DNA from: Candidatus Fermentibacteraceae bacterium
GTDB taxonomy: Bacteria > Fermentibacterota > Fermentibacteria > Fermentibacterales > JCC-6
Length of the DNA stretch: 39,026 nt
Assembly (NCBI GenBank): GCA_030592635.1
Contig: JAUVIS010000005.1
Location: 1-39,026 of the forward strand
Direction of reading: 5' to 3'
Shown: one piece after another, positions 3,674-33,346 of the stretch
Position numbering within the stretch: position 1 is the first letter of the stretch
How the letters are laid out: the number at the start of each line of letters is the position of its first letter
The notes under the pieces: model-generated
Databases searched by the model: none
The model's input: only the letters and a program-made list of their open reading frames with translations
Told to the model about the DNA's origin: nothing
Program-made: the position numbers and the translations under genes

Positions 3674-3686
3674 GAGAGAGGCTGAT

Positions 3687-4958: not shown

Positions 4959-4972
4959 GAATAGGAGATAAA

Positions 4973-19300: not shown

Positions 19301-22300
19301 ATAAAACAGAGAGGAAAGAACCGGTTGTGTTTTTTCAAGATCAAGACAGGTTACTCTACCGGCTGCAAGCTCTCTCCTGCTGAAAACATCAGCTCTGGTA
19401 AACGAGGATTCAATTAAATCCGGATCACTGTATCTTTCTGCCAGATGCTCAATAGCCGCCCTGTCACCGGCACAGAAAGTTATGAAATGCAACACACTGC
19501 TGCCCTCGGGAGGAAGCTCCAGTTCTGTCCCCATGCACATGACAGGATCAAGAGTCTCTCCCGTGGTGCGGGAAAGCCCGGGAACTGTTCCGGAAAGAGC
19601 CGCCGGGCAGTCCGCTGAAGTTCCCCTGCCAAGAAACTTCATTCTGTCAGTTTCATAGCTCAATGATATCTTCGATGATCCGGAAATCATCTGTCCCAGA
19701 AAGACATCCCTTTCATCCGTTTTCCGCTTCCTTCTGTGAAACAGCAGCACCCCTGCCTTTTTAATAAACTCACTTGTTGTGAAGAGTTTATTGAAGGCCG
19801 GATGCCCGATGTCATCCTTTCGGAGAGCAAGTACAATCTCGGAGTAGCTGCATATAAAGAGCTTTCTCTGTCTGGAACTGTTGTTGACTATCTCTATGCG
19901 CCGAATTCCCGCGTCCTCTTCCGGATCAACGATAATCTCCATGCGTGTGGATATCTCGTGATTTCTGCTTGCAAACTCAACCTTGTGGGGAAGGAAATGT
20001 ATTCGATTATCCGGCGAATCAGCTCCTGCCGGTCTCAGGGTAACTGACCACAGGTTGCCTGAATCCATATCCTTCAGATAGATCCAGGTTCCCCGGTTAT
20101 CCAGAGTCGTGTCCGCCTGCCACCGGGTCAGATCCAGTCCCTTCCAGTTACTGAATCCACCTCCGGAATCAGTAATCAGCTCACCGAAACTGCCGTTTGA
20201 AAGGTAGTGTACCCGGGGTACCGGGAATTCTCCCGAAACTGACCACGGAAGCAGATCGGCCTTCTGTTTGCTTTCAGTATGCTGGATTCCCGGTTCAGGG
20301 CGGGAGTACACAATGGGAGCATTTACCGGTATCTGCTCCTGAAGCAGCAGTTTTACCACCTTCATCGCGGGCTCGGTGAAAAATCGATCCACCATGATAT
20401 CTCTGCAGAGGAAATTTGTAATTGAGAGCAGTATCATCGCTTGATGGTGTGCCATATAAGAGCGCACGATCATGAATTCTCTGCCTGCCGGAAGTCTTTG
20501 CGGAGTGAAGTCTGCAGCCTCGAAGAAACCGTATCTGCCCATCATTCCCATGGCAGTCATCTTATCGATATTCCTGATGACAGCCGCGGGTTCAATGGAA
20601 ATCGCAAGCAATGAAGCATAGGGTGTTACTACAGAATCATCCCCAAGCCCCCTCTTGTACCCCAGACCGGGCACACCGAATGCTTTGTACTGATAGTGAT
20701 TATCCGGATCAAACCTGTAGTAGCCTGATTCCGATACTCCCCAGGGGCGGCCTGATTTTTCGCCGTAGTTGATCTGGTGCCTCACAACAGTGCGGCAGCT
20801 CTGGCCGAGAAGAGTACCGGTCCTGTTTCCTGTTACAAGCAGAGGCATAAGGTATTCAAACATGGTTCCGCTCCAGGAGAGAAGTCCCATGGTTCCTGAT
20901 GCTGCCGTGAGCGGTCTGGACATGTGAATCCAGTGATCTCCGGGGACATCTCCCCGGGCAATGGCTATCAAACTTGCCAGCCGGGCTTCAGAGGCAAGAA
21001 GGTCGTAGTAGTTCCGATCCAGATGTTCCGACTCCATATTAAAGCCAATATGGAATACCTTTCGCTTCCTGCTGTAGAGAAAACCGAATCTCATCCTCCG
21101 AAGCTCTGATCTGATCTGTGATTCCAGCCTTTTCAGGGTTTCCTGTGTCTCAGTTGAGGTGCGTGTGCTCTCTTTAAGCAGCCTGCGAAGTTCATCGCAC
21201 CACTTTACAGCCGCGACGGTTTTTTCAGACGGAGCAATATCCCCAATTGCAGTACAGAGAGCGGTCAGATGCTGCTCTGCTCTTGCCGCAGAAGCTTTCA
21301 TTTCTTCCGGGGTCGGACATGACGGAAGCGATTGAAGAAGCATCTGCCAGGCAGACGCGACTGCCTTTGATGAGTTATCCGATGAAAGAATTTCCGGAGG
21401 TTTGGAAATATGAAACTTCCAGGGATAGAAATCCTCTATTTCTCTGAGCATTCCGGCCAGGTGAATGCGCATCCTTCCTGACCAGGTTCTAAGGTCACCA
21501 ATTGCATTCGCTGAACTGCTTTCCATGCTTCTGTTCACAACTTCAAGGAGAAGCGCATCTGTGGCTGAGAGTTCTGTGTTATACAGATCAACCAGAAGAT
21601 TCAGACAGGCGTCACTATCGTCCATGTTTAGCAGAGTTTGCTCTTTAACAGTCTTCAGATTTGCATCCAGCTCTGCTGTATCAGTTTTCATTGCCTCTGT
21701 TATATCCAGCAGGACATCAACTGTATCCACAAAGCCCTGCCACCTCTTCCGGCTGATTTGAGCGCAATCACCCAGCTCCCGACACCCGCAGGCAAGAGCG
21801 ATAAGACAGCCGGACAGGTTGCCGCTGTCCACAGTGGATACATATCCGGGCGGCAGAGGTTTCAGAGTGCGGGTATCGTACCAGTTGAGCAGATGTCCGC
21901 GATGTCTTTCCAGTAGACTCATTCCCGAGAGGGTATCTGAAATTCGAAGCACGAACTCCTGCAATCCAATGTATCCCATGTCCCTCGCGGAAAGAACCGT
22001 CAGAAGATAGAGCCCTATGTTGGTTGGGGAAGTTCTGTGAGCTGCTCTGGCAAGCGGGTCTTCCTGATAGTGATCCGGAGGCAGCCAGTGGTCTTCCGGG
22101 CCAACAAAAGTATCGAAGAAGCTCCATGTTCTTACGGCCGTCTTCCGCAGTTTTGTGATCTCATCTTTCCGGAGCTCCGGTTTTTCCCGAATGGGAGTGC
22201 GGCTGATTGCGTGTTCAACTTCCGGAGATACCAGCCACAGAAGAAGAAAGGGTATGGCCGGATAAATCCCGTTTGAATCGGAAAGCAGAAGCAGAATCAC

Positions 22301-24712
22301 AAAAAGAGGAACGATAATAAGAACGGCGTGCATTTGTCCCCAGGCCAGGCTTCGTTTTGTGTCACCGCCGAACATTCTTGAGGTGTTTGCCGCTGAGGTC
22401 CACTCCAGAAGGTTTTTCCCGGTGATTGTCAGCCTGAACAGAGTAACAGCGACAGCATGCAGTTTCATGAATGTTTCGTACGGAAGGAAGACCAGTCCGA
22501 AGAAAGCTCTGAGCCAGTGCTGCCCGTGAGATCTCCCTGACCGGCGACGGGGTTTTCGAATGGATTCCATCAAGGGACACCGGAATAGTATCACCAGGGA
22601 GATAACGGTCCACATAACGGGAGACCCCGGCAGGCAGAGCCATCCGGAAACGAGAAGAATCAGCAGTGCAGGGTCAGAAAGACTCCTCCTCATGTTGTCC
22701 AGAATCTTCCATTTATCCAGACCGGAGAAACTGTTCTTCAGTTTTCCTCCGGAGGCATCGGGAACCATTCGCCGGAGCCACGGCAGGAGCTGCCAGTCTC
22801 CCCTTACCCACCTGTGCAGACGATAGATCCACGCAATGTAGTTTGACGGGAAGTCCTCGTACAGCACTATGTCACTTACCAGCCCAGCCCTGCCCTGCAT
22901 GCCTTCAAACAGATCGTGACTGAGAAGCGAATTCGCTGGTACTTTCCCTTTCAGGCAGTTGTCAAATGCAACAGGATCATAAATCCCTTTTCCCACATAG
23001 CTGCCTTTACCAAAAAGATCCTGGTAGACATCAGATACAGCATTTGAGTAGAGATCCACGCTGAAGTCTCCCGGGAAGACCTTTGAGAAAACAGAACGCT
23101 TCCCCCCCCCTGATGCCGGAAGTACTCTGGGTTGAAGAACAGAGTAGCCGCAGTTCCTGCCGAATTGATTAAGCGGATGAGCCATTGTGGCTGCCAGTTT
23201 TGCGGCAGACCCTGAAGGCAATGCTGTATCGCTATCCAGCGTAATAACATAACGGATATTCTGCGGAATCTTCCCCGTTATGTATGAAGTTTCTCCTCCC
23301 TTTAGAAGCAATCTGTTGAATTCCATCAGTTTGCCCCTTTTTCTTTCCCATCCCATCCAGCAGTTTTCAGCCCCGTTCCAGAGCCTTTTTCTGTGGAAAA
23401 TGTGAAAAATATTCCCCGACCTGCGTTTGTACTTTGTGTTTAAATATTTTATCTCCTGCAGAGCGTCGTTGAGAAGGCTGCTGTCTTCAGGCATATCCTC
23501 AAAGGGTGCGTCTTTGTAGTCGGAAAGCAGGGCGAATACAAGATTTTTATCGGGATTTCCCAGGTAATGCTGTTCCAGCTGTTTTACAAGAATCCTCATC
23601 TCTTCTGTATTTCCGAGCAGTGTGGGAATCACCACAACAGTCCTGCACTCAACGGGAATTCCGCTGCTGAAATCCATTCTGGGTAATCGATCCGGAGATG
23701 TTGAGTGCAGAATGAGTTCATTGACAATATCTACACCCGCCGCCGACGCGGGAATAATGGAAAGGAGGATTACAGTAAGCACTCCCAGGGTGTCTGCTCC
23801 GCTGCCGGATGCATAGACGGCAAGCAGCCACAGCACAAGAATTGTGAGTACAGAAATCCCCCCGAGATAAAAAGTGAGTTTCCAGCGAAAAGATGTGAGA
23901 AAATTTCTGCGGGTACAGCCCACAGCGGATTTTAAAAGCGCGCGGCCTTCCGGGGTGTTGAAGAAGAATCCCACATGCGAGGAGCGCTGGTCACCGGAGA
24001 CAAGTCCTGCAAGTTCAACACACTTTGAAGCAATTTCAGTTTCAGAAATTCCAGCACATCTGGAAGTATCCTCAACAGTATTTCTGTAGCTGTCGCGGGT
24101 GGCGAAGTCCATCCTGGAGTAAATCCCAGCAGGATCCTGCCTCAGAATTTTCTCAACAAGGCTGACTTTCTCAAAAAATTCCTTCCAGTTCACCTCATCA
24201 AACAGGCGGAGATTCAGAATACAGAGTGATATATCTTCATCCGAATTTTCGCCTTTAAGAATGAGTTCCAGAGTTTCTGTAAGATTGAGGAGGATACAAA
24301 GTCGAAGCATGGATGGAATTGCCCACACCTCCCCTGTTGTCAGTGGGGTGCCCTTTTGATACTTTCTCAGAAAGCGAATCACTTTGGAGATTTCCAGCTG
24401 TTCACTCTGATGTTCAGTGATTTCAGAGCAGACAGAGAAAATCCTTGTTGGGTCACGGGAAGAGGAGGTTGTAAGAACAGGCAGTTGCCTGTAGTACTTG
24501 AAAGGAAGATCTTCTTTGACCTGCCGGATAGCCCGCTGGACGATATAGTAGTTATCCTGAAACCATTCTGAGGCACTGGTGCTTATCTCTTTATCGTTTC
24601 TGAAGTACTGGTACGCTGATCTGGCTGTTTCTCCGGATCTGCGGAGAATGGAAGGAAGTTTGTAAGAATATCTTCGGCGCGGGGATCGTACGCCGATTAA
24701 CGCTGAAAACAT
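16388..24712 (-). CDS. ndvB: cyclic beta-1,2-glucan synthase (GT84-glucoamylase-like-GH94)
   Basis: 2774 aa. N-terminal ~280 residues, membrane helices (~285-345), GT84 domain with LDSDTALP (~492-499) and the RLHRWVRGDW block (~632-641), further helices, a glucoamylase-like domain (WGVSESGYYRFDP near 1320, YMAHHQAM near 1424), two beta-sandwich GH94-N-like domains (~1540-1800 and ~2030-2300) and a C-terminal GH94 catalytic-type domain with GSHDWNDGMNRVG (~2450). This is the NdvB/Cgs layout: the GT84 part builds protein-linked beta-1,2-glucan in the inner membrane and the GH94 part sets length by phosphorolysis. The product is a periplasmic cyclic glucan. ATG 24712 has GGAGGGG upstream. 35 nt downstream of a stress-protein gene, so likely co-transcribed. 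Confidence 0.93.
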   Translation of the reverse strand: MFSALIGVRSPRRRYSYKLPSILRRSGETARSAYQYFRNDKEISTSASEWFQDNYYIVQRAIRQVKEDLPFKYYRQLPVLTTSSSRDPTRIFSVCSEITEHQSEQLEISKVIRFLRKYQKGTPLTTGEVWAIPSMLRLCILLNLTETLELILKGENSDEDISLCILNLRLFDEVNWKEFFEKVSLVEKILRQDPAGIYSRMDFATRDSYRNTVEDTSRCAGISETEIASKCVELAGLVSGDQRSSHVGFFFNTPEGRALLKSAVGCTRRNFLTSFRWKLTFYLGGISVLTILVLWLLAVYASGSGADTLGVLTVILLSIIPASAAGVDIVNELILHSTSPDRLPRMDFSSGIPVECRTVVVIPTLLGNTEEMRILVKQLEQHYLGNPDKNLVFALLSDYKDAPFEDMPEDSSLLNDALQEIKYLNTKYKRRSGNIFHIFHRKRLWNGAENCWMGWERKRGKLMEFNRLLLKGGETSYITGKIPQNIRYVITLDSDTALPSGSAAKLAATMAHPLNQFGRNCGYSVLQPRVLPASGGGKRSVFSKVFPGDFSVDLYSNAVSDVYQDLFGKGSYVGKGIYDPVAFDNCLKGKVPANSLLSHDLFEGMQGRAGLVSDIVLYEDFPSNYIAWIYRLHRWVRGDWQLLPWLRRMVPDASGGKLKNSFSGLDKWKILDNMRRSLSDPALLILLVSGWLCLPGSPVMWTVISLVILFRCPLMESIRKPRRRSGRSHGQHWLRAFFGLVFLPYETFMKLHAVAVTLFRLTITGKNLLEWTSAANTSRMFGGDTKRSLAWGQMHAVLIIVPLFVILLLLSDSNGIYPAIPFLLLWLVSPEVEHAISRTPIREKPELRKDEITKLRKTAVRTWSFFDTFVGPEDHWLPPDHYQEDPLARAAHRTSPTNIGLYLLTVLSARDMGYIGLQEFVLRISDTLSGMSLLERHRGHLLNWYDTRTLKPLPPGYVSTVDSGNLSGCLIALACGCRELGDCAQISRKRWQGFVDTVDVLLDITEAMKTDTAELDANLKTVKEQTLLNMDDSDACLNLLVDLYNTELSATDALLLEVVNRSMESSSANAIGDLRTWSGRMRIHLAGMLREIEDFYPWKFHISKPPEILSSDNSSKAVASAWQMLLQSLPSCPTPEEMKASAARAEQHLTALCTAIGDIAPSEKTVAAVKWCDELRRLLKESTRTSTETQETLKRLESQIRSELRRMRFGFLYSRKRKVFHIGFNMESEHLDRNYYDLLASEARLASLIAIARGDVPGDHWIHMSRPLTAASGTMGLLSWSGTMFEYLMPLLVTGNRTGTLLGQSCRTVVRHQINYGEKSGRPWGVSESGYYRFDPDNHYQYKAFGVPGLGYKRGLGDDSVVTPYASLLAISIEPAAVIRNIDKMTAMGMMGRYGFFEAADFTPQRLPAGREFMIVRSYMAHHQAMILLSITNFLCRDIMVDRFFTEPAMKVVKLLLQEQIPVNAPIVYSRPEPGIQHTESKQKADLLPWSVSGEFPVPRVHYLSNGSFGELITDSGGGFSNWKGLDLTRWQADTTLDNRGTWIYLKDMDSGNLWSVTLRPAGADSPDNRIHFLPHKVEFASRNHEISTRMEIIVDPEEDAGIRRIEIVNNSSRQRKLFICSYSEIVLALRKDDIGHPAFNKLFTTSEFIKKAGVLLFHRRKRKTDERDVFLGQMISGSSKISLSYETDRMKFLGRGTSADCPAALSGTVPGLSRTTGETLDPVMCMGTELELPPEGSSVLHFITFCAGDRAAIEHLAERYSDPDLIESSFTRADVFSRRELAAGRVTCLDLEKTQPVLSSLFYPSAPLRALPEILEANTLGQRELWRFGISGDNPILLLSIEPDESTDLLIELLRVHSFWKKRGLLTDLVILNGEESGYELELQGKLNRLLSRTGADKFQNSAGGVFLIRTGQISESELILLKTRAHVFLNCGSDLGMQTQNLARRPVRLPEFVPVQVKADEQAPILKKPDELVFFNGSGGFSCDGREYIIYLQGNEWTPSPWINVISNPSLGFIASESGLGCSWAVNSGENRLSPWNNDPVADTPGEAVYLRDEETGDFWSPSPLPVREKEAYLIRHGAGYTSWEHNSHGLIQKMIAYASPEYPLKAVNVFLQNSGKHNRRISITFYIEPVLGARRAQTQQFIVSEFSAQANAILACNTSGRKPPAGVFFLASSRTPNGLTTDRTEFLGRSGSYENPACLHRTGLSGTIRTGLDPCMAMQVIIWIGPGENKEVTFLLGQGESREEALTLIGDNMVGMQDGSVLNRVPEAWDDLLESITVDTPDAGMNIMLNRWLLYQTLSCRIWGRSALYQSSGAFGFRDQLQDCMALCNAAPEILREHILKSASMQFPEGDVLHWWHPPGYTGVRTRCSDDLLWLPYATSLYVEKTGDKSILSEVIPFLEGNPLEDDEVERYAEYVPSDKKAALHEHCLRALAKGSTSGPHGLPLMGSHDWNDGMNRVGIKGRGESVWLGWFLYDTLIRYSRMCLLLSDLHNFDIYTSHAESLKHTLNGNTWDGEWYLRGFYDDGTPLGSSANDECRIDSIAQSWAVLSGAGERERTEIAMNSVLKHLLDSDSNLLLLLAPPFDKSDHDPGYIMGYPPGIRENGGQYTHAAAWVAWAFAKQGRGDIAESLFRLLNPVYHSDSPGKRDIYRVEPYVAAADVYSAAEHRGQGGWTWYTGSSGWLYRLGIEAILGLTTSGSNLMINPCIPAGWAGFSAVIKRGDATFRITVSNPDDVSTGVASVTLDGVQLKSGLIPLDKDGSDHAVAVVMGTT
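23102..23110 (-). repeat. homopolymer G9 tract inside the glucan synthase gene
   Basis: Nine consecutive C on the plus strand (G on the coding strand) encode three Gly codons at residues 535-537, inside the GT84 domain. Gain or loss of one base would shift the frame within the first fifth of the protein. Confidence 0.9.
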
Positions 24713-24747: not shown

Positions 24748-25701
24748 TTAGTGACCGGCGTTCTCTCCCGCAGCCTTTTCGGCTCTTGTTCTCGCCGCTC
24801 TTCTGAAGGGTATATCCTGCATCACCAGCAGAGGAGTAGAACCGGAGGCGATGAAGCTTACTGCAACACTGCCGTATGGCCAGTTTGTATCACCCTCGTA
24901 TCCGTGCGCACTGAGGATGACCAGTTCAATCTCCTCGTTTTTTACCAGATTCTCAAGGGTTGCAGCCACATTTCTGCCCACCGTCAGTCTTGTGGCAGGC
25001 ACCACATTCTCCGACGCAAGTTGAGCGGTCAACTGCCTCAGGTAATCTTCCGCTACCGCCTGGTTCCTCTCTATCAACTGTTCTGACAGTTTAATGTCCT
25101 CTGACGAAGGAGGCAGCCTTCTTGGCATTTCCGGAGCTCTCAGAACATGGGCGAGAAGCAGTTCGGCATTCTGCGCGCCGGCAAGCATTACGCCCATTGA
25201 TACCGCAGTCTCGGCACGGCTTGAACAATCAAGAGCAACCATGATTCTGTTGTAACCGGTCACATTGTCCGCTCCGTAAGCCCGGACAATCAGCATTGAG
25301 GTGTAGGAACGCAGTATTATCTTCTGGACAACGCTGCTGATGTTCCAGCCACTCAGTCCGCTCCTGCCGTGGCTGGAAAGAATCATAAAGTCTACATCGT
25401 TACCGTGAGCATATTCTATGACGCTTTCTGCGGCAGATCCCTCCACAAGAACACAATTTACCTCAGAAAGAGTTTCTCTAAGCTTTTCAGCGATTCTGTC
25501 AAGGTAGAGTCTGGCCTCTGCCCGCAGCATATGCCAGTCCAGCGGGCTGACCGGATAAAGACCGGCAGTCTGGTGCGGGCGTTCAAGGGAATGGAAAAGA
25601 GTGACCCTGGCTCCCATGGCATCAGACATAATATTTACATGGGGCAGCACACACTCGGCAAGATCGGAGCCGTCAAGAGGAACCAGAATATGACTGAACA
25701 T
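24748..25701 (-). CDS. tandem universal stress protein (two UspA domains)
   Basis: 317 aa: two Usp domains in one chain (~1-145 and ~155-300), each starting with an ILVPLDGS- or IMVALDCS-type strand. The second keeps an ATP-binding-like pattern near HGYEGDTNWPYGSV. In the first the equivalent HGRSGLSGWNISSV has Ser in place of the last Gly, so it may not bind nucleotide. The role is general stress response; the target is unknown. I start at ATG 25701, where AGGGGAG lies just upstream and the chain begins directly with the first Usp strand (MFSHILVPLDGS); an upstream in-frame start at 25725 is less likely. It precedes the glucan synthase gene by 35 nt. Confidence 0.88.
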   Translation of the reverse strand: MFSHILVPLDGSDLAECVLPHVNIMSDAMGARVTLFHSLERPHQTAGLYPVSPLDWHMLRAEARLYLDRIAEKLRETLSEVNCVLVEGSAAESVIEYAHGNDVDFMILSSHGRSGLSGWNISSVVQKIILRSYTSMLIVRAYGADNVTGYNRIMVALDCSSRAETAVSMGVMLAGAQNAELLLAHVLRAPEMPRRLPPSSEDIKLSEQLIERNQAVAEDYLRQLTAQLASENVVPATRLTVGRNVAATLENLVKNEEIELVILSAHGYEGDTNWPYGSVAVSFIASGSTPLLVMQDIPFRRAARTRAEKAAGENAGH

Positions 25702-25801
25702 TTCGTCTCCCCTCACATAACCCATGTAAGATTACTAACAGAAGTGTGTCGAGATAGCAAGACCCCGGCCAAGTCGAGAATGTGGTTATATAGGCTGATA
25801 A

Positions 25802-26485
25802 CTATAAGATAGAGCAGTGCTCCCTGGTTACACAGGAAACACTCCAGTACCCGCCTGAATAAACTTTGTATTGAATGTTTTCAGCGAAGTGATTCAGATG
25901 TTCAAATAGCTGTTCTTTATCCGGTACATTTTTAATAATGGAGAATTCCTCTCCACAGGCTCTTCTCTGTGCTATCCTGTTTCCACACAGATCGGTGCAA
26001 TGTGTTTGCGAATCGCTGTCTTCAAGCTGATCGATAAAGACAACAGGTGCGCCAGGCGCAAGTTTCCGGTGGAGAAGGGTGAGAAATTCTCTGATGCGTT
26101 GTCTGGGTATATGACACCAGAACAGCACTGCGAAGGCACCGGTAAAGCCTTCAGGAACATTCTGTAAATCGTAAGCGTCAGAAACAGAAAAAGAAACATT
26201 GGGTAAATGGAACAACCTTGTCTTTGCCTCTGCAATCATTGACGGATTGACATCAGTGCCCAGCACGGAATTTGCGCTGTTCGCTGCAATTCCTGTCCAG
26301 AATCCGGTTCCGCACGCAATCTCAAGTACATCAAGCCCTCTGAATGTGCTCTGAAGCAGTTCTGCCTCAGGTTTGATGAGTATGTCCGACTCAGAATCTT
26401 TCGAGTAGTATTTATGATGATACTCAGTTGCCTGGAGTTTGTAATATTCGGCAACGGCTTTTTCCCTGCTCCCGGACGAGAACAT
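25802..26485 (-). CDS. class I SAM-dependent methyltransferase
   Basis: 227 aa. Rossmann-type methyltransferase with motif I VLEIACGTGFW (53-63), acidic residue at the end of strand 2 (LGTDVNPSM), motif post-II VSDAYDLQ, and FAVLFWCHIP in the usual motif IV position. It has the layout of methyltransferase families 11/25. The substrate cannot be told. ATG 26485-26483 overlaps the stop of the PIN remnant by one base (TGATG) and has no good ribosome site, so it may depend on coupling to that remnant or to readthrough from the toxin-antitoxin promoter. Composition is AT-richer than the housekeeping blocks. Confidence 0.8.
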   Translation of the reverse strand: MFSSGSREKAVAEYYKLQATEYHHKYYSKDSESDILIKPEAELLQSTFRGLDVLEIACGTGFWTGIAANSANSVLGTDVNPSMIAEAKTRLFHLPNVSFSVSDAYDLQNVPEGFTGAFAVLFWCHIPRQRIREFLTLLHRKLAPGAPVVFIDQLEDSDSQTHCTDLCGNRIAQRRACGEEFSIIKNVPDKEQLFEHLNHFAENIQYKVYSGGYWSVSCVTREHCSIL

Positions 26486-26706
26486 CAGTTGCTCTTTAGT
26501 ACTGGCATAGCAGCAACAAAATCCGCAGGAGCAAAAACGGGAAGAGTGGACTGTTTAAAATCAACAGTATTTCTCGTTACTATGCTTTCAATACCAGCAT
26601 GACAGGCAGCTTCGTGAAGAACTGCATCCTCAAAAACCCTGAAATTCAGCAACAATCCCGGAAAGAGATTTCCCGGTTCGCGATGAATACTCTTTCGCAT
26701 ACTCAA
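26485..26706 (-). pseudogene. PIN-domain toxin (VapC-like), C-terminal remnant
   Basis: The readable frame gives 73 aa. Only the last ~53 (NFRVFEDAVLHEAACHAG, IESIVTRNTVDF, LPVFAPADFV) resemble the C-terminal third of a PIN nuclease: the FEDA helix, the IVTRN-DF strand with its acidic residue, and the final P-x-F helix. The N-terminal PIN part, with the first catalytic Asp, is absent. The preceding ~20 codons are the shifted frame of the upstream antitoxin remnant. The deletion joint is near 26640-26650. Not expected to be an active nuclease. Confidence 0.7.
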
Positions 26707-26746
26707 TGAGAAACTCGTCCATTCATAAAGTTAACCTGGTATTCAT
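26630..26746 (-). pseudogene. antitoxin gene remnant (VapB/DUF6364-like) with nonsense codon
   Basis: From ATG 26746, which has a strong GGAGG site, the frame reads MNTRLTL, TGA (26725-26723), then MDEFLIEYAKEYSSRTGKSL and SGIVAEF before a second TGA at 26632-26630. Without the first stop this matches short antitoxins of pattern KLTLRLDE-LIEKAKEYAK-GKSLS. A single CGA-to-TGA change would explain codon 8. The C-terminal end is lost where the PIN remnant begins. ATG 26722, directly after the stop, could still restart a shortened peptide. Confidence 0.65.
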
Positions 26747-26764
26747 GGTTTCCTCCAGGAGAGA

Positions 26765-26789
26765 CGTACTAAACTAATATCATAGTACG
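26765..26789 (-). promoter_or_regulatory. palindromic operator of the toxin-antitoxin module
   Basis: Perfect 7-bp inverted repeat CGTACTA / TAGTACG with an 11-nt centre, about 20 nt upstream of the antitoxin ATG. It overlaps the -10 of the putative promoter, as expected for an autoregulated vapBC-type operator. Confidence 0.65.
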
Positions 26790-26810
26790 CCATGGCTCAT
26801 CAAGAGTCAA
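26782..26810 (-). promoter_or_regulatory. promoter of the toxin-antitoxin/methyltransferase unit
   Basis: On the minus strand, TTGACT (26810-26805, 5 of 6) lies 17 nt before TACTAT (26787-26782, 4 of 6). The -10 falls inside the operator palindrome. It lies in the gap after the membrane-protein gene. Confidence 0.5.
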
Positions 26811-26818
26811 TACCGGAC

Positions 26819-27352
26819 TTAACTTTTTCGTCTGGCGATTCCAAGGATAAGACCAAGCACCAGAGACCATGCGGCAGCCAGACCGATCTGGGCATCGTGA
26901 CTGGCAATGCTGAAGGTAAGTGTGTGAGCGGGAATCCAGAACCAGACAAGACTTTTGATTGCGATGTCCATTCCCCTGTATCCCTTTGTACCAAGCAGAA
27001 GATTGTCTTCCCAGCGGTGGAAGAACATCATCTGAGGTCCGAAAAGAAGGTTGGTGAATAGACTCATGCAGAAGGCGGACAGAAGAACATTTGCAGTCGG
27101 CCAGTGGAATTTTGTGAAGATTGCGGCGGTGAAGCCGTGCATGCCGATGAAACCGACCTTGATAACGAGCCCCAGGATTCCCCATCCCAGCATTTTCTTT
27201 GAGAATTGAAATGGTGTGTATTCAATCTTTTTCCTTGTTACTGCTGACGCTATCCAGTCTCCCGCCATTCCCAGGATGGCAAATTGAACAAACGCGGCCT
27301 GGAAGGGGTAGCATTCTACAGTTTTCAAATACCATTCAAAGATGTTGCCCAT
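26819..27352 (-). CDS. conserved multi-pass membrane protein of unknown function
   Basis: 177 aa with about five hydrophobic segments (near 18-36, 52-72, 87-108, 130-152, 157-173). Notable polar positions inside the membrane region include GDW, the FGPQMMFFHRWEDN loop and WIPAH. I do not recognise a named family. ATG 27352 is preceded by AAGGAA, which forms the last codons and stop of batD (gap 3 nt), so it is translated as the last gene of the Bat operon. Its place suggests an envelope role, but this is inference. Confidence 0.65.
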   Translation of the reverse strand: MGNIFEWYLKTVECYPFQAAFVQFAILGMAGDWIASAVTRKKIEYTPFQFSKKMLGWGILGLVIKVGFIGMHGFTAAIFTKFHWPTANVLLSAFCMSLFTNLLFGPQMMFFHRWEDNLLLGTKGYRGMDIAIKSLVWFWIPAHTLTFSIASHDAQIGLAAAWSLVLGLILGIARRKS

Positions 27353-27355
27353 AGT

Positions 27356-28945
27356 TTATTCCTTTTCATCGTTTGATTTAAGGTCTTTGCGAAGCTTATA
27401 CAGAAGCTCATCCGCGGTTGTTTTCAGCTTTTCGAAAGCGGGTCCCGTTATTTCCCTGTCTGACAGTGACTGTTCCAGATCTCTCCAGAATCGCAGGATC
27501 CGTCTGGCAAGGAAGCTGTCTGTGTTGCACTGATCAAGAAATTCATCAAGTTCTTCGTAGCCCAGATATTCTTTTCTGCCGGTGAGCATTTTCGATAACT
27601 CACCTTCCAGTCCGGAAAGAAGTTCATCAATATCGCCGGCACTTGTCACAGAAGCAAGTCTCTTGTCTCTTCGTCTTGCAGCTACTCCAAATACTACAGT
27701 CAGGGCAAGAACGCCAAGTATGCCCGTGAATACCCAGAGTAGCGGGGAGCCGCCACTCTCTACCGGATCCAGTTCAATTGCTTTGTCGGGCCATGGAATA
27801 ACTGTCACATATAATGAGCATGGTGCAACAAGGGCCGTATTGTAAGTGCTGGTTCTTCGGTTCAGCCAGACAACGGAATCCGGTCCCAGGACGCAATGTC
27901 CTGTCTCTTCCGGTTCGATAATGAAGTTCCACCATTTCTTGTTGTTCGAGGAGCCGTTGTCCGTCGGTATGAGGTTTGCGTTTCCTTGAAGGGTGAGAAC
28001 CGGAGGTTCATTCATGTAGATGCAGCCGGGACCAAGGCAGGTAATCCTGACTGCAAGCTCTCCCCCCTGCCCTGGAGGCGCGGGGAGCTGTTCAACTCGT
28101 ACGGCAACACTGTCAAGAAGAGTCTCATCCCAGCAGTCAGGCGGATTATCCGGGAAGGGATAAACAGGAAGTACTATTGGTGCGCTTTCTTCTGTCCACT
28201 GGGGTATTTTTCCCCAGCGGTCGTAGCCGGTTCCGGTTATGTCTGCCAGGAATGTCGGCGCAAGAAGACTGCCGGCAGCGGCAGGAGCCATCTCAACTAC
28301 AGCGAGAAGACTGCGTTTGGTGCTATTGTGCTTGGAATCCGCGATTTCCCAGTTGCTGTCAGGAATGGTCTTCACATGAGAAATAACGCCCAGCTCGGGT
28401 GCGCTCCACCAGTAAGTCACATTCTCGACATTAACGCGGCTGTATACATAATAGTCTATGAACAGCCTGGTTCCCGGATAAATGCGTCCTTCGGGATCAT
28501 GCAGAATACCTGCCAGCCAGACATCTTCTGCTGGTTCAGATACATCCTCTGCAGTGCTTCCCAGGGAGCCGTTTGTTCCGGCGGATCCGTTCACGGTGAC
28601 AGTTATCTGATCCAGTGTATAGGAACCGATGGAATGCAGTGTGAGATCAATCGGACCTATTGTATAATCACCTTCGCTTTCCGCGTAGAAGATCATATCA
28701 AGCACAACAACCTGTGTAAGCTGTCTGCCGGTGGGTGTTGTAACTGTTGAAATACTCGTTGAAGTAGAGCTGCCCCGCAGGGTAAGGGCCGATGATGAAG
28801 GAACGCGACCGGCGGAAATTCCGGAGCACCCCGGTTCGGAACAGGTTATGCGAAAAGAAAAAGTTTCGCCTGCTTCCACTGATTGCGGGCATTCCCAGTC
28901 AAATGGCTGAGATCCAAAGAGAAGAAGAATGAGTATTCCTACCAA
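27356..28945 (-). CDS. batD: BatD-like protein (large periplasmic part, one C-terminal TM)
   Basis: 529 aa. Signal peptide (1-10 or slightly longer), a long beta-rich periplasmic region (~20-390) of the BatD / oxygen-tolerance type starting with a domain like VEAGETFSFRI, one transmembrane segment at 401-423, and a cytoplasmic tail of ~105 residues with charged helices. It is part of the Bat (Bacteroides aerotolerance) set; molecular function unknown. The start is TTG 28945-28943, overlapping the TPR gene stop, with GGAG 8 nt before. Cys pairs (Cys35/Cys40, Cys303/Cys308) sit in parallel positions of two similar beta domains and may form disulfides. Confidence 0.8.
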   Translation of the reverse strand: MVGILILLLFGSQPFDWECPQSVEAGETFSFRITCSEPGCSGISAGRVPSSSALTLRGSSTSTSISTVTTPTGRQLTQVVVLDMIFYAESEGDYTIGPIDLTLHSIGSYTLDQITVTVNGSAGTNGSLGSTAEDVSEPAEDVWLAGILHDPEGRIYPGTRLFIDYYVYSRVNVENVTYWWSAPELGVISHVKTIPDSNWEIADSKHNSTKRSLLAVVEMAPAAAGSLLAPTFLADITGTGYDRWGKIPQWTEESAPIVLPVYPFPDNPPDCWDETLLDSVAVRVEQLPAPPGQGGELAVRITCLGPGCIYMNEPPVLTLQGNANLIPTDNGSSNNKKWWNFIIEPEETGHCVLGPDSVVWLNRRTSTYNTALVAPCSLYVTVIPWPDKAIELDPVESGGSPLLWVFTGILGVLALTVVFGVAARRRDKRLASVTSAGDIDELLSGLEGELSKMLTGRKEYLGYEELDEFLDQCNTDSFLARRILRFWRDLEQSLSDREITGPAFEKLKTTADELLYKLRKDLKSNDEKE

Positions 28946-29700
28946 TTTGGAACTCCAATAGCTCCACTCGCACTGCCGTCGGTTGACTCAGCCTCTGCTT
29001 CTTCAACCATATCAAGGATCATCTGCGCCACTTCAGGGGTCATCTCGGATTCCGCCGGAGGCGGAGGCTGGTTTTCTTCCTGATCCTCGTTGTCCTCAGG
29101 CTCTTCCTGATCCTCGTTGTCCTCAGGCTCTTCCTGATCCTCGTTGTCCTCAGGCTCTTCCTGATCCTCGTTGTCCTCGGGTTCTTCCTGATCCTCGTTG
29201 TCCTCGGGTTCTTCCTGATCCTCGTTGTCTTCAGGCTCTTCCTGATCTTCAGGGGGCGGAGGTTCGTTCTGCATCAGCCATTTGAGCGCGACTTCGTAGT
29301 TCTGGCGTACGCGTTCAGAGGATTCTCCAGAGGATAACCCGGGAAGGAGCATTTCAAGCACACTCTGTACTCCCGCATAATCACCGTTGGCCATAGCGTT
29401 GCCCAGCCGGGCGGAGGATTTTGCTTCAAGCAGGGTGTCTCCCCTGAATACATCTTCAGGAAAAATGGAGAAAAGACTGTCTGCCGTGAGAAGATCGTCC
29501 ATTGCAAAGCTCGAGACTGCATGGTTGTAGACGGCTCTGGGGTTATCAGGCATTCTTTTGAAAATCTCATTGAAGATTACAGTGGATTCTTCGTATCTGT
29601 CTTCCTCGACAAGCCCGGCTGCTTCAAGATAGAGGTCAAGGAGAGGTGTGCGATCCGGCGAGGAGACAGTGGTCATAATGAGCAGCGCTATTACCGTCAT
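28939..29700 (-). CDS. batC: BatC-like TPR protein with acidic repeats
   Basis: 253 aa. Signal-like hydrophobic N terminus, TPR helices (~20-145: YEESTVIFNEIFKRMPDNPRAVYNHAVS and following), then six perfect or near-perfect copies of EDQEEPEDN (151-204), a Pro-rich joint and a conserved C-terminal helix (MTPEVAQMILDMVEEAE). The TPR-plus-C-terminal-helix layout, with low-complexity linker, is that of BatC/BatE proteins of Bat operons. Likely periplasmic or membrane-bound adaptor for the VWA proteins. ATG overlaps the BatB stop by 4 nt and its own stop lies inside the batD start. Confidence 0.8.
   Translation of the reverse strand: MTVIALLIMTTVSSPDRTPLLDLYLEAAGLVEEDRYEESTVIFNEIFKRMPDNPRAVYNHAVSSFAMDDLLTADSLFSIFPEDVFRGDTLLEAKSSARLGNAMANGDYAGVQSVLEMLLPGLSSGESSERVRQNYEVALKWLMQNEPPPPEDQEEPEDNEDQEEPEDNEDQEEPEDNEDQEEPEDNEDQEEPEDNEDQEEPEDNEDQEENQPPPPAESEMTPEVAQMILDMVEEAEAESTDGSASGAIGVPNW
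29089..29250 (-). repeat. 27-bp tandem repeats within the BatC-like gene
   Basis: Six in-frame 27-bp units code for EDQEEPEDN (residues 151-204), nearly identical at DNA level (TCTTCCTGATCCTCGTTGTC on the plus strand) with a few synonymous changes, followed by a partial unit. Copy number changes would not shift the frame. Confidence 0.95.
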
Positions 29701-30674
29701 GACTGCTTCCTCTCAAGGGTGATGGCAGTCAATATGAGAAGAAGGGCGGCTCCAAGGAAATACTGGAATCTTCTCGCTCCGGAAGCTCCGGCTATGTTCG
29801 CGTCCGCCCGGGCGGAACTGCGGCGCAGAAGTTCGTTCACTGGTTCGGAGAGGTCTCCGGCTTCAGAAATTCTGGTGTAAAATCCCCCGGTTCTTTCAGC
29901 AAGTTCCTGCAGCCATTCCTCCTCAATAACCGTTTTTACTGTGTCTCCCTGCCAGACAAGAGGGCCGTTGTCGCCTGGAACCGTCACAGGAGTGTCACCG
30001 CCCGCTCCGACAGTGATAAGTGCCATTCTGTGCCGGCGAGCTTCATCAACAGCATCGTTCAGTGTGTAATCGTGAAATCCTCCATCGGAAAAAATTATTC
30101 CCACCTGCCCCTCCATGTCCATATCAGGCAGAGCTGTAGCCATAACATCAACAAGGTTGCTCAGTGCAGTTCCCTGTGGAAGTGAAACAGCATCTGAGGG
30201 GCTTGAGGGGATTCTGTCAAGAATGAAGTCGTTGTCAAGTGTAATAGGAACTGCAAGCCTGGCGTGACCGCTGAAGAGGACAAGACTGAATCTGGTACCC
30301 GGCATTGACCTGATAAGCCGTCTTATTTCCATAGCGGATCTGCCCAGGCGGGTAGGAGCCTCGTCATCGCTCCACATGGATCTGGATACATCAAGTGCAA
30401 TCACCACATTTTCGCCCCCGCTGGGAATATAGGCCGGGGAAGTGCCCCATACGGGACCGGCGGCAGAGAAGGCAAGAAGCACGACAGCAATGGAAATCAG
30501 CAGACGGGATATCTTATGCTGAGCCGGCGGCGTAATGCCCATTTTTTTCCAGAGTACGGGCCTGACAAATCTCCGAAGACGCTTTTCGTCATCTCTGAGC
30601 CATCGGAGTCTGAGCCACCAGTACAAGGGGCTTGCAAGAGCAAGAATAATCATCCATGGTCTCTGGAATTCCAT
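29697..30674 (-). CDS. batB: BatB-like VWA-domain membrane protein
   Basis: 325 aa from ATG 30674. Two N-terminal membrane segments (~6-20 and ~57-78), a von Willebrand A domain with metal-site motif DVSRS (95-99), a later TAL and FSDGG, and a C-terminal membrane helix (~RFQYFLGAALLLILTAI). Typical BatB layout. VWA domains bind partner proteins through a metal ion; here probably at the periplasmic side of the inner membrane. The start is chosen over upstream codons because AGGAGGG is well placed and ATG overlaps the BatA stop (TAATG). Confidence 0.88.
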   Translation of the reverse strand: MEFQRPWMIILALASPLYWWLRLRWLRDDEKRLRRFVRPVLWKKMGITPPAQHKISRLLISIAVVLLAFSAAGPVWGTSPAYIPSGGENVVIALDVSRSMWSDDEAPTRLGRSAMEIRRLIRSMPGTRFSLVLFSGHARLAVPITLDNDFILDRIPSSPSDAVSLPQGTALSNLVDVMATALPDMDMEGQVGIIFSDGGFHDYTLNDAVDEARRHRMALITVGAGGDTPVTVPGDNGPLVWQGDTVKTVIEEEWLQELAERTGGFYTRISEAGDLSEPVNELLRRSSARADANIAGASGARRFQYFLGAALLLILTAITLERKQS

Positions 30675-31618
30675 TACTGCCCCCCTCCTGTTATGCGGAA
30701 TGTTTTCCATCTGGAAAACTCACCGACCGCAAGCAGAAGAAGTCCCCAGATCAGCCAGCCAAGGTAGTGATCCCTGTAAATGAAAAGCCCGTGCTCCGGA
30801 AGAGTTGATGCTTCCAGAGAGTCTATGGAAGCATATACACTTTCAAGGTCATCTTTGTTGTAAACATTGAAAAGTCTGCCGTTGTTAAGCTCTGCTATGG
30901 AGGAAAGGGTTTCCCGATCAACCTCGTACCCGCTGTTTTCCATGCCGATGGCTACAGTATAAACTGCGATACTGTCCCCGTGCAGAATGCTGACTGCTTC
31001 CGCGACAGTTATGGGATCCACAACACCGGCGGTTTCCACTCCGTCAGAGAGAAGGACAATCACACGCCTGTCTGTGCTGGAAGAACCAAGTCCGCGGGCA
31101 GCAGTGGCAAGCCCGGATCCGATAGCGGTACCGTCGGTTAAAAAACCCAGTTCAGCACTGGTTATGAATCTGGTCAGTGTAGAGTGGTCAAATGTGGGAG
31201 GGCATATCGTGATTGGCTCTGCCGCATAGAGAACAAGCCCTATTCTGTCGTTGGGCCGGTCTTCAATAAATTCAAGAGCTGCGTCTTTTGCTGCTTCAAG
31301 TCTGTTGGGGTTGTAGTCTTCAGCCAGCATGCTTGTGGAAACATCCAGAGCTATAACAATGTCAACTCCCTCTCCCGCGTCGGGAAGTCTCTCAAACCCG
31401 CTTTGAGGTCTTGCCAGCGCTATGATCAGAAAAAGGAGACCGATCCACGGGATGAATACTGTAAAAAACCCTCCCGAGGTTACAGTTGGTGTGCCTGTGA
31501 AAGGACCTGTGAATACTGCCCCCCTTTTCCCGGAGGAAGTATTTTTCCTGATAATTAATGCAACAAAGGCTATCGCAGGATAGAGAAAGAGAATTGGCCA
31601 GAGGGCGAATCTTATCAT
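30674..31618 (-). CDS. batA: BatA-like VWA-domain membrane protein
   Basis: About 314 aa. Two N-terminal membrane segments (~5-22 and ~50-68), VWA domain with DVSTS metal motif (92-96), FLTDGTAIGSGL, LLSDGVE, and a C-terminal membrane helix (YLGWLIWGLLLLAVGEF). It is more canonical than its neighbour BatB. ATG 31618 overlaps the stop of the upstream gene (ATGA) and has GAGGAG ~10 nt before; GTG 31627 is in frame but its ribosome site would be too close. Predicted client or partner of the MoxR ATPase encoded upstream. Confidence 0.9.
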   Translation of the reverse strand: MIRFALWPILFLYPAIAFVALIIRKNTSSGKRGAVFTGPFTGTPTVTSGGFFTVFIPWIGLLFLIIALARPQSGFERLPDAGEGVDIVIALDVSTSMLAEDYNPNRLEAAKDAALEFIEDRPNDRIGLVLYAAEPITICPPTFDHSTLTRFITSAELGFLTDGTAIGSGLATAARGLGSSSTDRRVIVLLSDGVETAGVVDPITVAEAVSILHGDSIAVYTVAIGMENSGYEVDRETLSSIAELNNGRLFNVYNKDDLESVYASIDSLEASTLPEHGLFIYRDHYLGWLIWGLLLLAVGEFSRWKTFRITGGGQ

Positions 31619-32454
31619 CCGGACCACTCTCCTCTCAACTTTGCCAGTCTTCGGATAAAGCCTTCTGCCCGTTCCCGGGAACTGCCCCAGTCAGCGTATC
31701 GCTGAAGAGTTGTTTCCCTGATGACCGGTGATGCCTGCTCAAGAAACTTGCGTCCCTTTGCGGTTGATGAAAGAGTCCCTGCAATCTGATTAAGTGTGAG
31801 CGCTCTGTTCACCACGCCGAACTTCCCGGCGACTGTCGCTCTTAACTGTGCGTCAATCTCTGAGTACAGATATACCCAGTGGCCGTGTATGAAGTGTTCG
31901 GATTCAAGCAGGGCAAGCGCTTCGTTTTCCGCTGCTTTTCCAGAGGGAATATGAACTGCGGGCTCTGTATGGATGGAGTTCTTATTATTATTTCGCCTTA
32001 TCAGGAAGAATACAAGCGTTGCTGCAACAACAACTCCAGTTATGACCCACAGCCAGGGGAATCCGGGTGGTGTGCCCCAGACAAGCCAGAAAGATACACT
32101 TCTCGCGTAGTCTTCAGGAAGTCCCGGTGGAATGTTCATACAGCCCGGAAACGGGGGGAAAGACGGGATCATAACAGAATCCGGGAACCAGCCGGTGACA
32201 ACAGTCAGAGGAGGTTCCATGTAGAGAGTGTCTCCGGTATCGTTCCATGCGGTGAGAACCGGAAGCGGCAGGCTGTCGGAAAATGTCAGTGGCACAATTA
32301 CAAAGACACCGCAGTCGGCCTCAAGAACAGAAAACAGGGTATCGGATTTGAGTTCTTCACATGAAAAACCCTGTGGAATTGCGTAATCCACTTCAAAGGG
32401 CAGACCGGGATATGCATTTGAAACTGTTGAAAGAAGAAGAAGGATGTGAAGCAT
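31615..32454 (-). CDS. membrane protein of Bat operon (DUF4381-like)
   Basis: 279 aa. Signal peptide (1-14), a periplasmic domain to ~130, one transmembrane helix (132-153), and a cytoplasmic region whose helices (LALLESEHFIHGHWVYLYSEIDAQLRATV, then RYADWGSSRERAEGFIRRL) resemble the soluble tail of DUF4381-type proteins that sit between DUF58 and batA. Function unknown. ATG overlaps the DUF58 stop by one base (TGATG). Family assignment rests on layout and position more than on sharp motifs. Confidence 0.6.
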   Translation of the reverse strand: MLHILLLLSTVSNAYPGLPFEVDYAIPQGFSCEELKSDTLFSVLEADCGVFVIVPLTFSDSLPLPVLTAWNDTGDTLYMEPPLTVVTGWFPDSVMIPSFPPFPGCMNIPPGLPEDYARSVSFWLVWGTPPGFPWLWVITGVVVAATLVFFLIRRNNNKNSIHTEPAVHIPSGKAAENEALALLESEHFIHGHWVYLYSEIDAQLRATVAGKFGVVNRALTLNQIAGTLSSTAKGRKFLEQASPVIRETTLQRYADWGSSRERAEGFIRRLAKLRGEWSG

Positions 32455-33341
32455 CAGTGGGCTCTCCTTTTCTTTCTGAGATGAAAGAATCTTCTCAGTG
32501 GAAGAATCAGGTCATCAGCTGTAGATATGCTTACAACATCAAGTTTTGTGCGTTTGCAGAGCATTTCCCTTTTAGAAGTCTGCTCCTGTACCTGTGCGGT
32601 AAAGGCTCTCTGCCAGGCGGGTGAGGAAGTGTTAACCACCGATTCCTTCCCGGATTCCGGATCTCTGAATCTGATTCTTCCAATATCAGGTACCCGAAGT
32701 TCTCTGGGATCGAAAACATGAATCCCGACCATGTCGTGTTTGCGGGAGAAAACTTTAAGTTGCCTCTCTCCTTTTGATCCGAACATGAAGTCGCTTACCA
32801 GAAAAATCAGAGCCCGTTTCTTCAAGACTCTTCCAAGAAAGCGCAGAGCATTTTCTACATCTGCCCTTTCCTGATGGTCGCTGGCTTCAAGCACCCTGCG
32901 GATTATGGCCAGAGAGTGGGCTCTGCCTTTATCAGGCGGCATGTAATCGTGAACCTTGTCACCATAAGTGAGAAGCCCGACTCTGTCATTACTTCTTGCT
33001 GCGGAAAGAGCGAGCACAGCGGCTGTTTCAGCGACCCGGTCCGCCTTGGTGATGTTGACGGATCCGAAGTTGAGACTGCCGGAAACATCAACAACAAGCA
33101 TAACAAGAAGCTCGCGCTCCTCGGTGAGCAGCTTTATAAACGGGGAGTTGGATCTGGCTGTTACATTCCAGTCAATGAGCCTGGGATCATCGCCCTCCAC
33201 ATAGGGTCTGTAGTCGCTGAATTCCATACCCTGTCCGCGAAAAACTGAGCGGTAGTCTCCTCCCACCAGTTGATCAACAAGCTTTCTGGTATGGATCTCA
33301 ATTCTTTGTACCCTCCGGAAGAGGCTGTGAGCAGTTTCCAT
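32454..33341 (-). CDS. DUF58 protein (VWA-like) of MoxR/Bat operon
   Basis: 295 aa. The DUF58 signature GMEFSDYRPYVEGDDPRLIDWNVTAR spans ~38-63, followed by a VWA-like fold with VVDVSGSLNFG (83-93, metal-site DxSxS pattern) and a later LVSDF strand. DUF58 proteins almost always sit directly after MoxR ATPases and are thought to be their partners. Start ATG 33341 lies 5 nt after the moxR stop, with AAAAGG upstream. Confidence 0.9.
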   Translation of the reverse strand: METAHSLFRRVQRIEIHTRKLVDQLVGGDYRSVFRGQGMEFSDYRPYVEGDDPRLIDWNVTARSNSPFIKLLTEERELLVMLVVDVSGSLNFGSVNITKADRVAETAAVLALSAARSNDRVGLLTYGDKVHDYMPPDKGRAHSLAIIRRVLEASDHQERADVENALRFLGRVLKKRALIFLVSDFMFGSKGERQLKVFSRKHDMVGIHVFDPRELRVPDIGRIRFRDPESGKESVVNTSSPAWQRAFTAQVQEQTSKREMLCKRTKLDVVSISTADDLILPLRRFFHLRKKRRAH

Positions 33342-33346
33342 TGAAA

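What the first reader, a model, noticed from the sequence alone, without database searches (positions are those of the whole stretch)
26485..26810. Fossil toxin-antitoxin module with intact promoter-operator
The antitoxin frame has a good ribosome site but a TGA at codon 8 (one base from CGA), and loses its end where a PIN-domain C-terminal piece begins in another frame. Upstream a 25-bp palindrome overlaps the -10 box, as in vapBC autoregulation. The methyltransferase start overlaps the PIN stop, so the dead module may now serve as leader and promoter for that gene.
Basis: partly seen in the sequence, partly recalled or inferred. Interest (0 to 1): 0.55.

Follow-up and report, generated by a model that had tools for sequence, protein, structure and literature searches.

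The report
Gutted toxin-antitoxin pair, operator kept
A bacterial toxin-antitoxin gene pair has been wrecked by a deletion and a stop codon, while its promoter and the DNA site its repressor would bind are still in place in front of a healthy methyltransferase gene; this is mostly ordinary gene decay, but it exposes a widely conserved control site of a little-studied antitoxin family.

Summary
Two congeneric genomes carry the intact pair at the same locus: an 80-aa DUF6364 (PF19891) antitoxin, a 141-aa PIN_3 (PF13470) toxin, then the methyltransferase, whose ATG overlaps the PIN stop. Against them the window has one 403-bp deletion between two TGCTGA repeats, which fuses antitoxin codon ~33 to the last ~53 PIN codons in another frame. 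It also has a TGA at antitoxin codon 8 and has lost a PIN aspartate invariant in 70 of 70 full-length relatives. The palindrome alone is weak evidence (70 comparable inverted repeats in the window). Comparison makes it real: 62 of 71 non-redundant DUF6364-PIN loci from several phyla have the site TGACGTAY-N15/16-RTACGTCA overlapping the -10 box (12 of 1420 shuffles do). The window keeps this site. Neither another DUF6364 gene nor a second such site was found in its ~89%-complete genome, so the operator appears to have lost its repressor. The methyltransferase was already third gene before decay and remains under purifying selection. That the leftover promoter now drives it, derepressed, is plausible but untested. 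Verdict: a genuine fossil of a VapBC-like module.

The parts
26805..26810 (-). -35 hexamer TTGACT
   Evidence: the same hexamer in G003 and G007; TTGACA-like (<=1 mismatch) at this distance in 43 of 62 family operators against 2.8% of 3100 shuffles
26782..26787 (-). -10 hexamer TACTAT, overlapping the left operator arm
   Evidence: TATTAT in G007, TATTGT in G003
26762..26792 (-). operator, TGGCGTAC-N15-GTACGTCT, 2 of 16 positions off the family consensus TGACGTAY-N15/16-RTACGTCA
   Evidence: 62 of 71 relatives; only match of GACGTAYN{12,18}RTACGYC in the window's own genome
26752..26756 (-). ribosome-binding site GGAGG of the antitoxin frame
   Evidence: kept in both intact relatives
26646..26746 (-). 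antitoxin remnant (DUF6364, codons 1 to about 33), TGA at codon 8 (26725-26723); the frame closes at TGA 26632-26630 past the junction
   Evidence: (PF19891 1.1e-9, TGA read as X)
26646..26651 (-). deletion junction: TGCTGA, the 6-nt direct repeat that bounds the missing 403 bp in both intact copies
26485..26651 (-). C-terminal remnant of the PIN_3 toxin, different frame; invariant Asp92 replaced by Val
25802..26485 (-). intact class I SAM methyltransferase; its ATG overlaps the PIN stop
   Evidence: PF13649 1.3e-14; orthologues in the genus; dN 0.19, dS 0.97 against G007
26819..27352 (-). upstream 177-aa gene (no Pfam match; membrane protein by its sequence), the fixed left flank of the locus in the congeners compared

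Best explanation
A decayed type II toxin-antitoxin module of the RHH-antitoxin / PIN-toxin (VapBC-like) kind. SHOWN by comparison: the ancestor was DUF6364 antitoxin - PIN_3 toxin (4-nt overlap) - methyltransferase (1-nt overlap), behind a TTGACT/TAYTAT-like promoter whose -10 box overlaps a 31-bp operator-like site. In this genome a 403-bp deletion between short repeats removed the antitoxin C-terminus and most of the PIN domain, and a stop codon interrupts the antitoxin start. INFERRED: in the intact operons the antitoxin, with or without toxin, binds the site and represses the whole operon including the methyltransferase. Here no repressor is left, so the promoter fires unrepressed and its transcript reads through a short relic into the methyltransferase. 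My confidence is about 0.95 for the fossil, 0.85 for the operator identity and 0.5 for present-day use of the promoter by the methyltransferase; the number below is for the first two together.
For: Antitoxin remnant over Pfam's cut-off, the only DUF6364 match at E<=1 in the genome. Intact modules at the same place in G003 and G007. Single 403-bp gap with a 6-nt repeat at its ends. 70 of 80 DUF6364 loci from several phyla carry a full PIN gene directly behind, 69 with the same 4-nt overlap and one (L092) with a longer one. Operator in 62 of 71 non-redundant relatives (<=3 of 16 mismatches) against 12 of 1420 dinucleotide shuffles, 1 of 69 and 0 of 71 position controls; the window scores 2. Antitoxin model resembles RHH DNA-binding domains (best Z 7.2 to CopASO, 6.6 TacA1, 5.8 CopG). 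PIN Asp92 invariant in 70 of 70 but Val here. Changes private to the window 9 nonsynonymous (one a stop): 5 synonymous, against 13:32 between the two intact gene pairs, Fisher p=0.026. Methyltransferase constrained, dN/dS about 0.19.
Against: No transcript or protein data. The promoter scan alone is at chance level and the palindrome alone is common in the window. Restricted to the same codons, the excess of nonsynonymous changes is not significant (9:5 against 5:9, p=0.26). The genome is about 89% complete, so a repressor acting in trans could lie in the missing part. The methyltransferase could be served by read-through from the upstream gene. Congeners G002, G005, G009 and G012 keep the methyltransferase without an intact module in front, so it does not depend on this promoter in general. 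9 of 71 family loci lack the operator by the computed criterion. Foldseek's best E for the antitoxin model is only 0.35.
Confidence: 0.86

Rival explanations
1. Same fossil, but promoter and operator are just as idle as the genes: the methyltransferase is transcribed by read-through from the upstream BatD-like/membrane-protein operon or by a promoter of its own, and the leader is neutral debris kept only because decay is recent.
For: Four congeners have the methyltransferase downstream of the same gene without an intact module: close behind in G005 and G009 (roughly 70 nt in G009; the start in G005 is unclear), 251 nt behind in G002, and with another gene between in G012. The leader is hardly better preserved than the dead coding parts: against G007, 3 substitutions and 1 gap in 72 columns (counted by eye), against 94 of 102 and 141 of 153 nt identical in the coding relics, so no clear sign of extra constraint.
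Against: -35, -10 and both operator arms are all still within the range of the family; the methyltransferase is still joined to the leader by the TGATG overlap.
Confidence: 0.45
2. Assembly or sequencing error in a draft genome: the pair is really intact.
For: The window belongs to a 235-contig draft and no reads are available.
Against: Several independent lesions (403-bp deletion, nonsense codon, loss of an invariant Asp, private changes that are mostly nonsynonymous) point the same way; the junction shows the repeat expected of a real deletion.
Confidence: 0.04
3. The relic is still a working short module: re-initiation at the ATG just behind the stop, or read-through, makes a truncated antitoxin that still represses.
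For: Codon 9 is ATG directly after the TGA, and the frame stays open for 30 codons, to 26630.
Against: Re-initiation would drop residues 1-8, the segment that by analogy with RHH proteins forms the DNA-binding strand (strand assignment recalled; helices start at residue 11 in the model). The deletion then ends the frame and removes the C-terminal, probably toxin-binding half (inferred).
Confidence: 0.03
4. Chance: two short frames that only look like an antitoxin and a PIN end.
For: The PIN piece alone is below Pfam's cut-off.
Against: Gap-free nucleotide alignment to syntenic intact genes in two congeners.
Confidence: 0.005

Closest known systems
   Same: Same locus, gene order, overlaps, promoter, operator and ribosome site
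   Different: Window lacks 403 bp, has a stop at antitoxin codon 8 and Val for PIN Asp92
VapBC type II toxin-antitoxin systems with RHH antitoxins (FitAB; PMC3384007, passages seen)
   Same: PIN toxin behind a small DNA-binding antitoxin; the passages describe VapBC complexes regulating their own promoter through operators, and FitAB binding DNA by two RHH motifs
   Different: DUF6364 is a separate Pfam family with its own TGACGTAY site; no activity has been tested; the window copy is dead
PIN_3 - RHH_6 pairs of Tn3-family transposons (PMC7157771, passages seen)
   Same: Same toxin family (PF13470) with an RHH antitoxin upstream
   Different: Another antitoxin family (PF16762); those travel in transposons, and I did not look for a transposon here
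BCG Moreau vapBC47 with deletion RD16 (PMC10453824, abstract and outline seen)
   Same: A deletion that inactivates a repressor raises expression of the genes behind it
   Different: There the TA genes are the ones turned up; here the TA module is the thing deleted and a methyltransferase would be turned up

Membership tests
DUF6364-PIN_3 (VapBC-like) module, as ancestor | antitoxin of family PF19891 | tested here: met
   remnant 1.1e-9; intact relatives 5.9e-24 and 2.6e-24
DUF6364-PIN_3 (VapBC-like) module, as ancestor | PIN-domain toxin gene directly behind, overlapping | tested here: met
   in G003 and G007 at this locus; PIN_3 1e-22 and 2.3e-24; 70 of 80 relatives
DUF6364-PIN_3 (VapBC-like) module, as ancestor | palindromic operator-like site at the promoter, conserved with the family | tested here: met
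   2 of 16 mismatches; 62 of 71 relatives within 3; binding itself not tested
Working type II toxin-antitoxin module, window copy | intact antitoxin and toxin frames | tested here: not met
   stop at codon 8, 403-bp deletion, frame change
Working type II toxin-antitoxin module, window copy | conserved acidic PIN residues | tested here: not met
   Asp6 and Asp12 lie in the deleted part, Asp92 is replaced; all three invariant in 70 of 70 full PINs
Ribbon-helix-helix antitoxin | RHH fold of the N-terminal about 45 residues | tested here: inconclusive
   Model pLDDT 79.7, pTM 0.41; listed matches are mostly RHH proteins, best Z 7.2, but the best Foldseek E is 0.35; weak sequence match to CopG, E 0.32, among unrelated ones
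Type II toxin-antitoxin system | toxicity, neutralisation and autoregulation | not testable with these tools
   needs bench work
Methyltransferase as third member of the module | constant company of the module | tested here: not met
   Of 68 loci (of 80) with a full PIN and enough DNA behind it, 10 have a frame of 60 aa or more starting within 30 nt, and only L065 and L066 (the two congeners) of these begin like the methyltransferase; four congeners have the methyltransferase without an intact module in front

The most novel reading that the evidence does not exclude
The module plugs into an operon by overlapping the start codon of the next gene, so decay hands that gene the module's promoter. 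The genus shows the stages: intact and autoregulated (G003, G007), gutted with the operator kept and repressor gone (window), and in G002 only a right operator arm, ribosome site and ATGAATACCAA left, read in frame into the methyltransferase. Loss of a toxin-antitoxin module would thus convert a conditionally repressed gene into a constitutive one.
Probability: 0.28. Interest if true: 0.5.

Novelty: new member of a known kind. Interest (0 to 1): 0.34.

Why it matters
Decayed toxin-antitoxin modules are no rarity. What is useful here is a mapped case with intact sister copies, and a cross-phylum operator motif that gives the uncharacterised family DUF6364 a concrete likely role (repressor of its own PIN operon) and a simple test. 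The term DUF6364 occurs in no paper of the held library, nor does PF19891. If the orphan operator does drive the methyltransferase, it would show how module loss rewires the host gene next door.

Tried and rejected
Consensus promoter scan: 2 sites found, 2.3 expected, so no evidence on its own. Generic palindrome scoring picked the operator in only some loci and was replaced by the two-arm motif test. Palindrome alone rejected as evidence: 70 comparable repeats in the window.

Sec or TGA recoding at codon 8 considered and rejected: an arginine codon stands there in both relatives, and their PIN genes end in TGA.

Mobility: the antitoxin had no match in the plasmid or phage collections at E<=1e-5. 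PADLOC gave only a weak match (JetB, 0.008) for the antitoxin and none for the PIN; NCBIfam had no family over its cut-off for either. Pfam also gave the antitoxin a sub-cut-off match to DUF6290 in two of three intact proteins. Profile search of the PDB with the PIN alignment found nothing at E<=0.01. Paper searches gave general toxin-antitoxin listings (seen as listings; three of those papers opened, one of them); (Sabulitectum) gave none.

The first look at the G002 spacer used a slice ending six bases too early and was negative: 459 and 441 of 500 shuffles reached the score for the two whole modules, 305 of 500 for the promoter-and-start stretch. With the right slice 22 of 1000 shuffles reached the score against the whole module and 0 of 1000 against the 50-nt start region, a test chosen after seeing the match. 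The G002 methyltransferase slices likewise carried two extra in-frame codons, which changes identities little. The spacer slices for G005 and G009 were rough; they gave no match.

In the operator count, 5 of 76 near-duplicate loci were dropped, and 2 of the 78 non-congener loci had too little upstream DNA. Four of the nine misses (L139-L142) appear, by eye, to carry the site abutting the ATG, where the search frame cut it.

Full report
WHAT IS THERE. Everything in the finding lies on the minus strand. From 5' to 3' on that strand: the stop of a 177-aa gene (26819; membrane protein by its sequence), TTGACT (26810-26805), a 31-bp inverted repeat (26792-26762) whose left arm runs into the -10 hexamer TACTAT (26787-26782), GGAGG, ATG at 26746, a TGA at codon 8, a junction at 26651-26646, a PIN C-terminal piece in another frame ending in TGA at 26487-26485, and the methyltransferase ATG at 26485. 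With X at the stop the first frame matches DUF6364 at 1.1e-9, over the curated cut-off; the PIN piece alone matches PIN_3 only weakly, 0.014.

INTACT COPIES. Of 60 genomes searched, the window's own included, 17 gave a DUF6364 match at E<=0.01 and 5 were over the family cut-off: the relic itself and full-length ones in G003, G007, G042 and G027. G003 and G007, of the same genus, carry it at this very locus: membrane protein, 80-aa antitoxin, 141-aa PIN overlapping by 4 nt, methyltransferase overlapping by 1 nt. Their contigs match in length records named Candidatus Sabulitectum sp. and Candidatus Fermentibacteraceae bacterium. Aligned to them, the window has one gap of 403 bp whose ends in both intact copies carry TGCTGA; one copy of the repeat remains. 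403 is not a multiple of three. Codon 8 is arginine in both intact copies, and the PIN Asp92, invariant in 70 of 70 full PINs, is Val in the window. Changes private to the window are 9 nonsynonymous to 5 synonymous. The two intact gene pairs differ from each other by 13 to 32 over whole genes (Fisher p=0.026), but over the same codons by 5 to 9 (p=0.26, not significant).

THE FAMILY. One scan of the genome collection gave 150 relatives, of which the best 80 were kept; they come from several phyla. 70 of 80 have a full PIN gene of at least 130 aa directly behind, 69 of them with the 4-nt overlap. Of the other ten, four stop at a contig end (L068, L090, L095, L116), one is shorter (L120) and five look broken (L084, L086, L094, L132, L135). 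So decay of this module is not rare, although sequencing errors in draft genomes cannot be excluded. By eye, four of these five keep the operator-like site (not L135). The antitoxin model (pLDDT 79.7, pTM 0.41) resembles RHH DNA-binding domains, best Z 7.2 over 48 residues to CopASO; the best Foldseek E is 0.35, so this is suggestive only.

THE OPERATOR. Alone, palindrome and promoter say little. In the family the same element recurs: TGACGTAY-N15/16-RTACGTCA with at most 3 of 16 mismatches in 62 of 71 non-redundant upstream regions (the two congeners and the window left out; spacing 15 in 42, 16 in 17, 14 in 2, 17 in 1), against 12 of 1420 dinucleotide shuffles, 1 of 69 regions 200-300 nt upstream and 0 of 71 regions inside the genes. 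The window, G007 and G003 each have 2 mismatches, spacing 15, 15 nt before the ATG. A TTGACA-like hexamer (at most 1 mismatch) stands 15-19 nt before the -10 position in 43 of 62, against 2.8% of 3100 shuffles. The window's genome holds one site of the pattern GACGTAYN{12,18}RTACGYC, this one; the stricter pattern has none. Its only DUF6364 match at E<=1 is the relic. The genome is 89% complete, so 'no repressor' is likely, not certain.

THE METHYLTRANSFERASE. It is intact and constrained (dN 0.19, dS 0.97 against G007). Of 60 genomes, own included, 15 have a match at E<=1e-10. G002, G005, G009 and G012 have it downstream of the same membrane-protein gene without an intact module; in G012 another gene lies between. 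So it looks like a bystander of the module, not a member. The module is younger at this site than its flanks: dS between G003 and G007 is 0.20 and 0.25 for antitoxin and PIN, and fourfold sites match at 87% and 83% in antitoxin and PIN but 56% and 36% in membrane protein and methyltransferase. The first 60 nt of the methyltransferase are 88% identical between G003 and G007, later 60-nt blocks 47-70%. This suggests that the module spread between species by recombination at a fixed place, taking the methyltransferase start with it (inference; no tree was built).

A POSSIBLE LATER STAGE. In G002 the methyltransferase frame begins MNTN-MFSS, and the DNA before it (a TACGGC arm, ribosome site, ATGAATACCAA) resembles the module's right arm and start. 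0 of 1000 shuffles reach the score against the 50-nt start region and 22 of 1000 against the whole module; among 231 ribosome-site-plus-ATG places in the seven sequences scanned only four carry at least 7 of 8 of AATACCAA, the three antitoxin starts and this one. The comparison was made after seeing the match, and a mis-sliced first try was negative, so I hold it as suggestive.

MECHANISM. In the intact operons the antitoxin most likely represses the operon through the operator. In the window the repressor is gone and the promoter parts are in place, so the likeliest state is an unrepressed promoter reading through a 262-nt relic into the methyltransferase. Read-through from upstream is nearly as likely, and no tool here can tell them apart.

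LITERATURE. 'DUF6364' and 'PF19891' occur in no paper of the held library; 'TGACGTA' with antitoxin and operator gave one listing, a paper on Photorhabdus XRE-like regulators, seen as a listing only. PIN_3 with another RHH antitoxin is known from Tn3 transposons (PMC7157771, passages). VapBC complexes bind operators at their promoters (PMC3384007, passages). In BCG Moreau a deletion that inactivates a repressor raises vapBC47 expression (PMC10453824, abstract). These searches cover open-licence papers only.

Noticed in passing
L065 (G007), PIN residue 95: G007's PIN has Asn where 69 of 70 relatives have Asp, near the invariant Asp92; its toxin may be weakened although the frame is intact.
   Followed up: no
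L129 = G042:C47, 3240-3695: The PIN of this KSB1 genome departs from the family after IVTR, as after a frameshift; possibly another decaying copy.
   Followed up: no
L086 (Delta proteobacterium NaphS2), 3001-5489: Antitoxin and PIN are separated by about 1.8 kb, with a second partial antitoxin copy directly before the PIN; looks like an insertion or duplication inside the module.
   Followed up: partly
L091, behind the PIN; L141, behind the PIN: A long frame starts overlapping the PIN stop in these too (344 aa at -3, looks like TsaD; 393 aa at 0, looks like ComM; names recalled), so start-codon overlap with the next gene is not unique to the methyltransferase.
   Followed up: no
window 24748-25725 and L053: In G011 a gene that looks like the universal stress protein gene found behind the methyltransferase in the window follows the membrane-protein gene directly; module plus methyltransferase may be a variable insert between the two.
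   Followed up: partly
window 16388-24712: A 2774-aa protein with GH94 and glucoamylase-like domains, like cyclic beta-glucan synthases (function recalled).
   Followed up: no
window 27356-35694: MoxR-type ATPase, VWA protein and BatD-like protein in one stretch, like a Bat-type operon (name recalled), beside a phosphoglucomutase-family gene.
   Followed up: no
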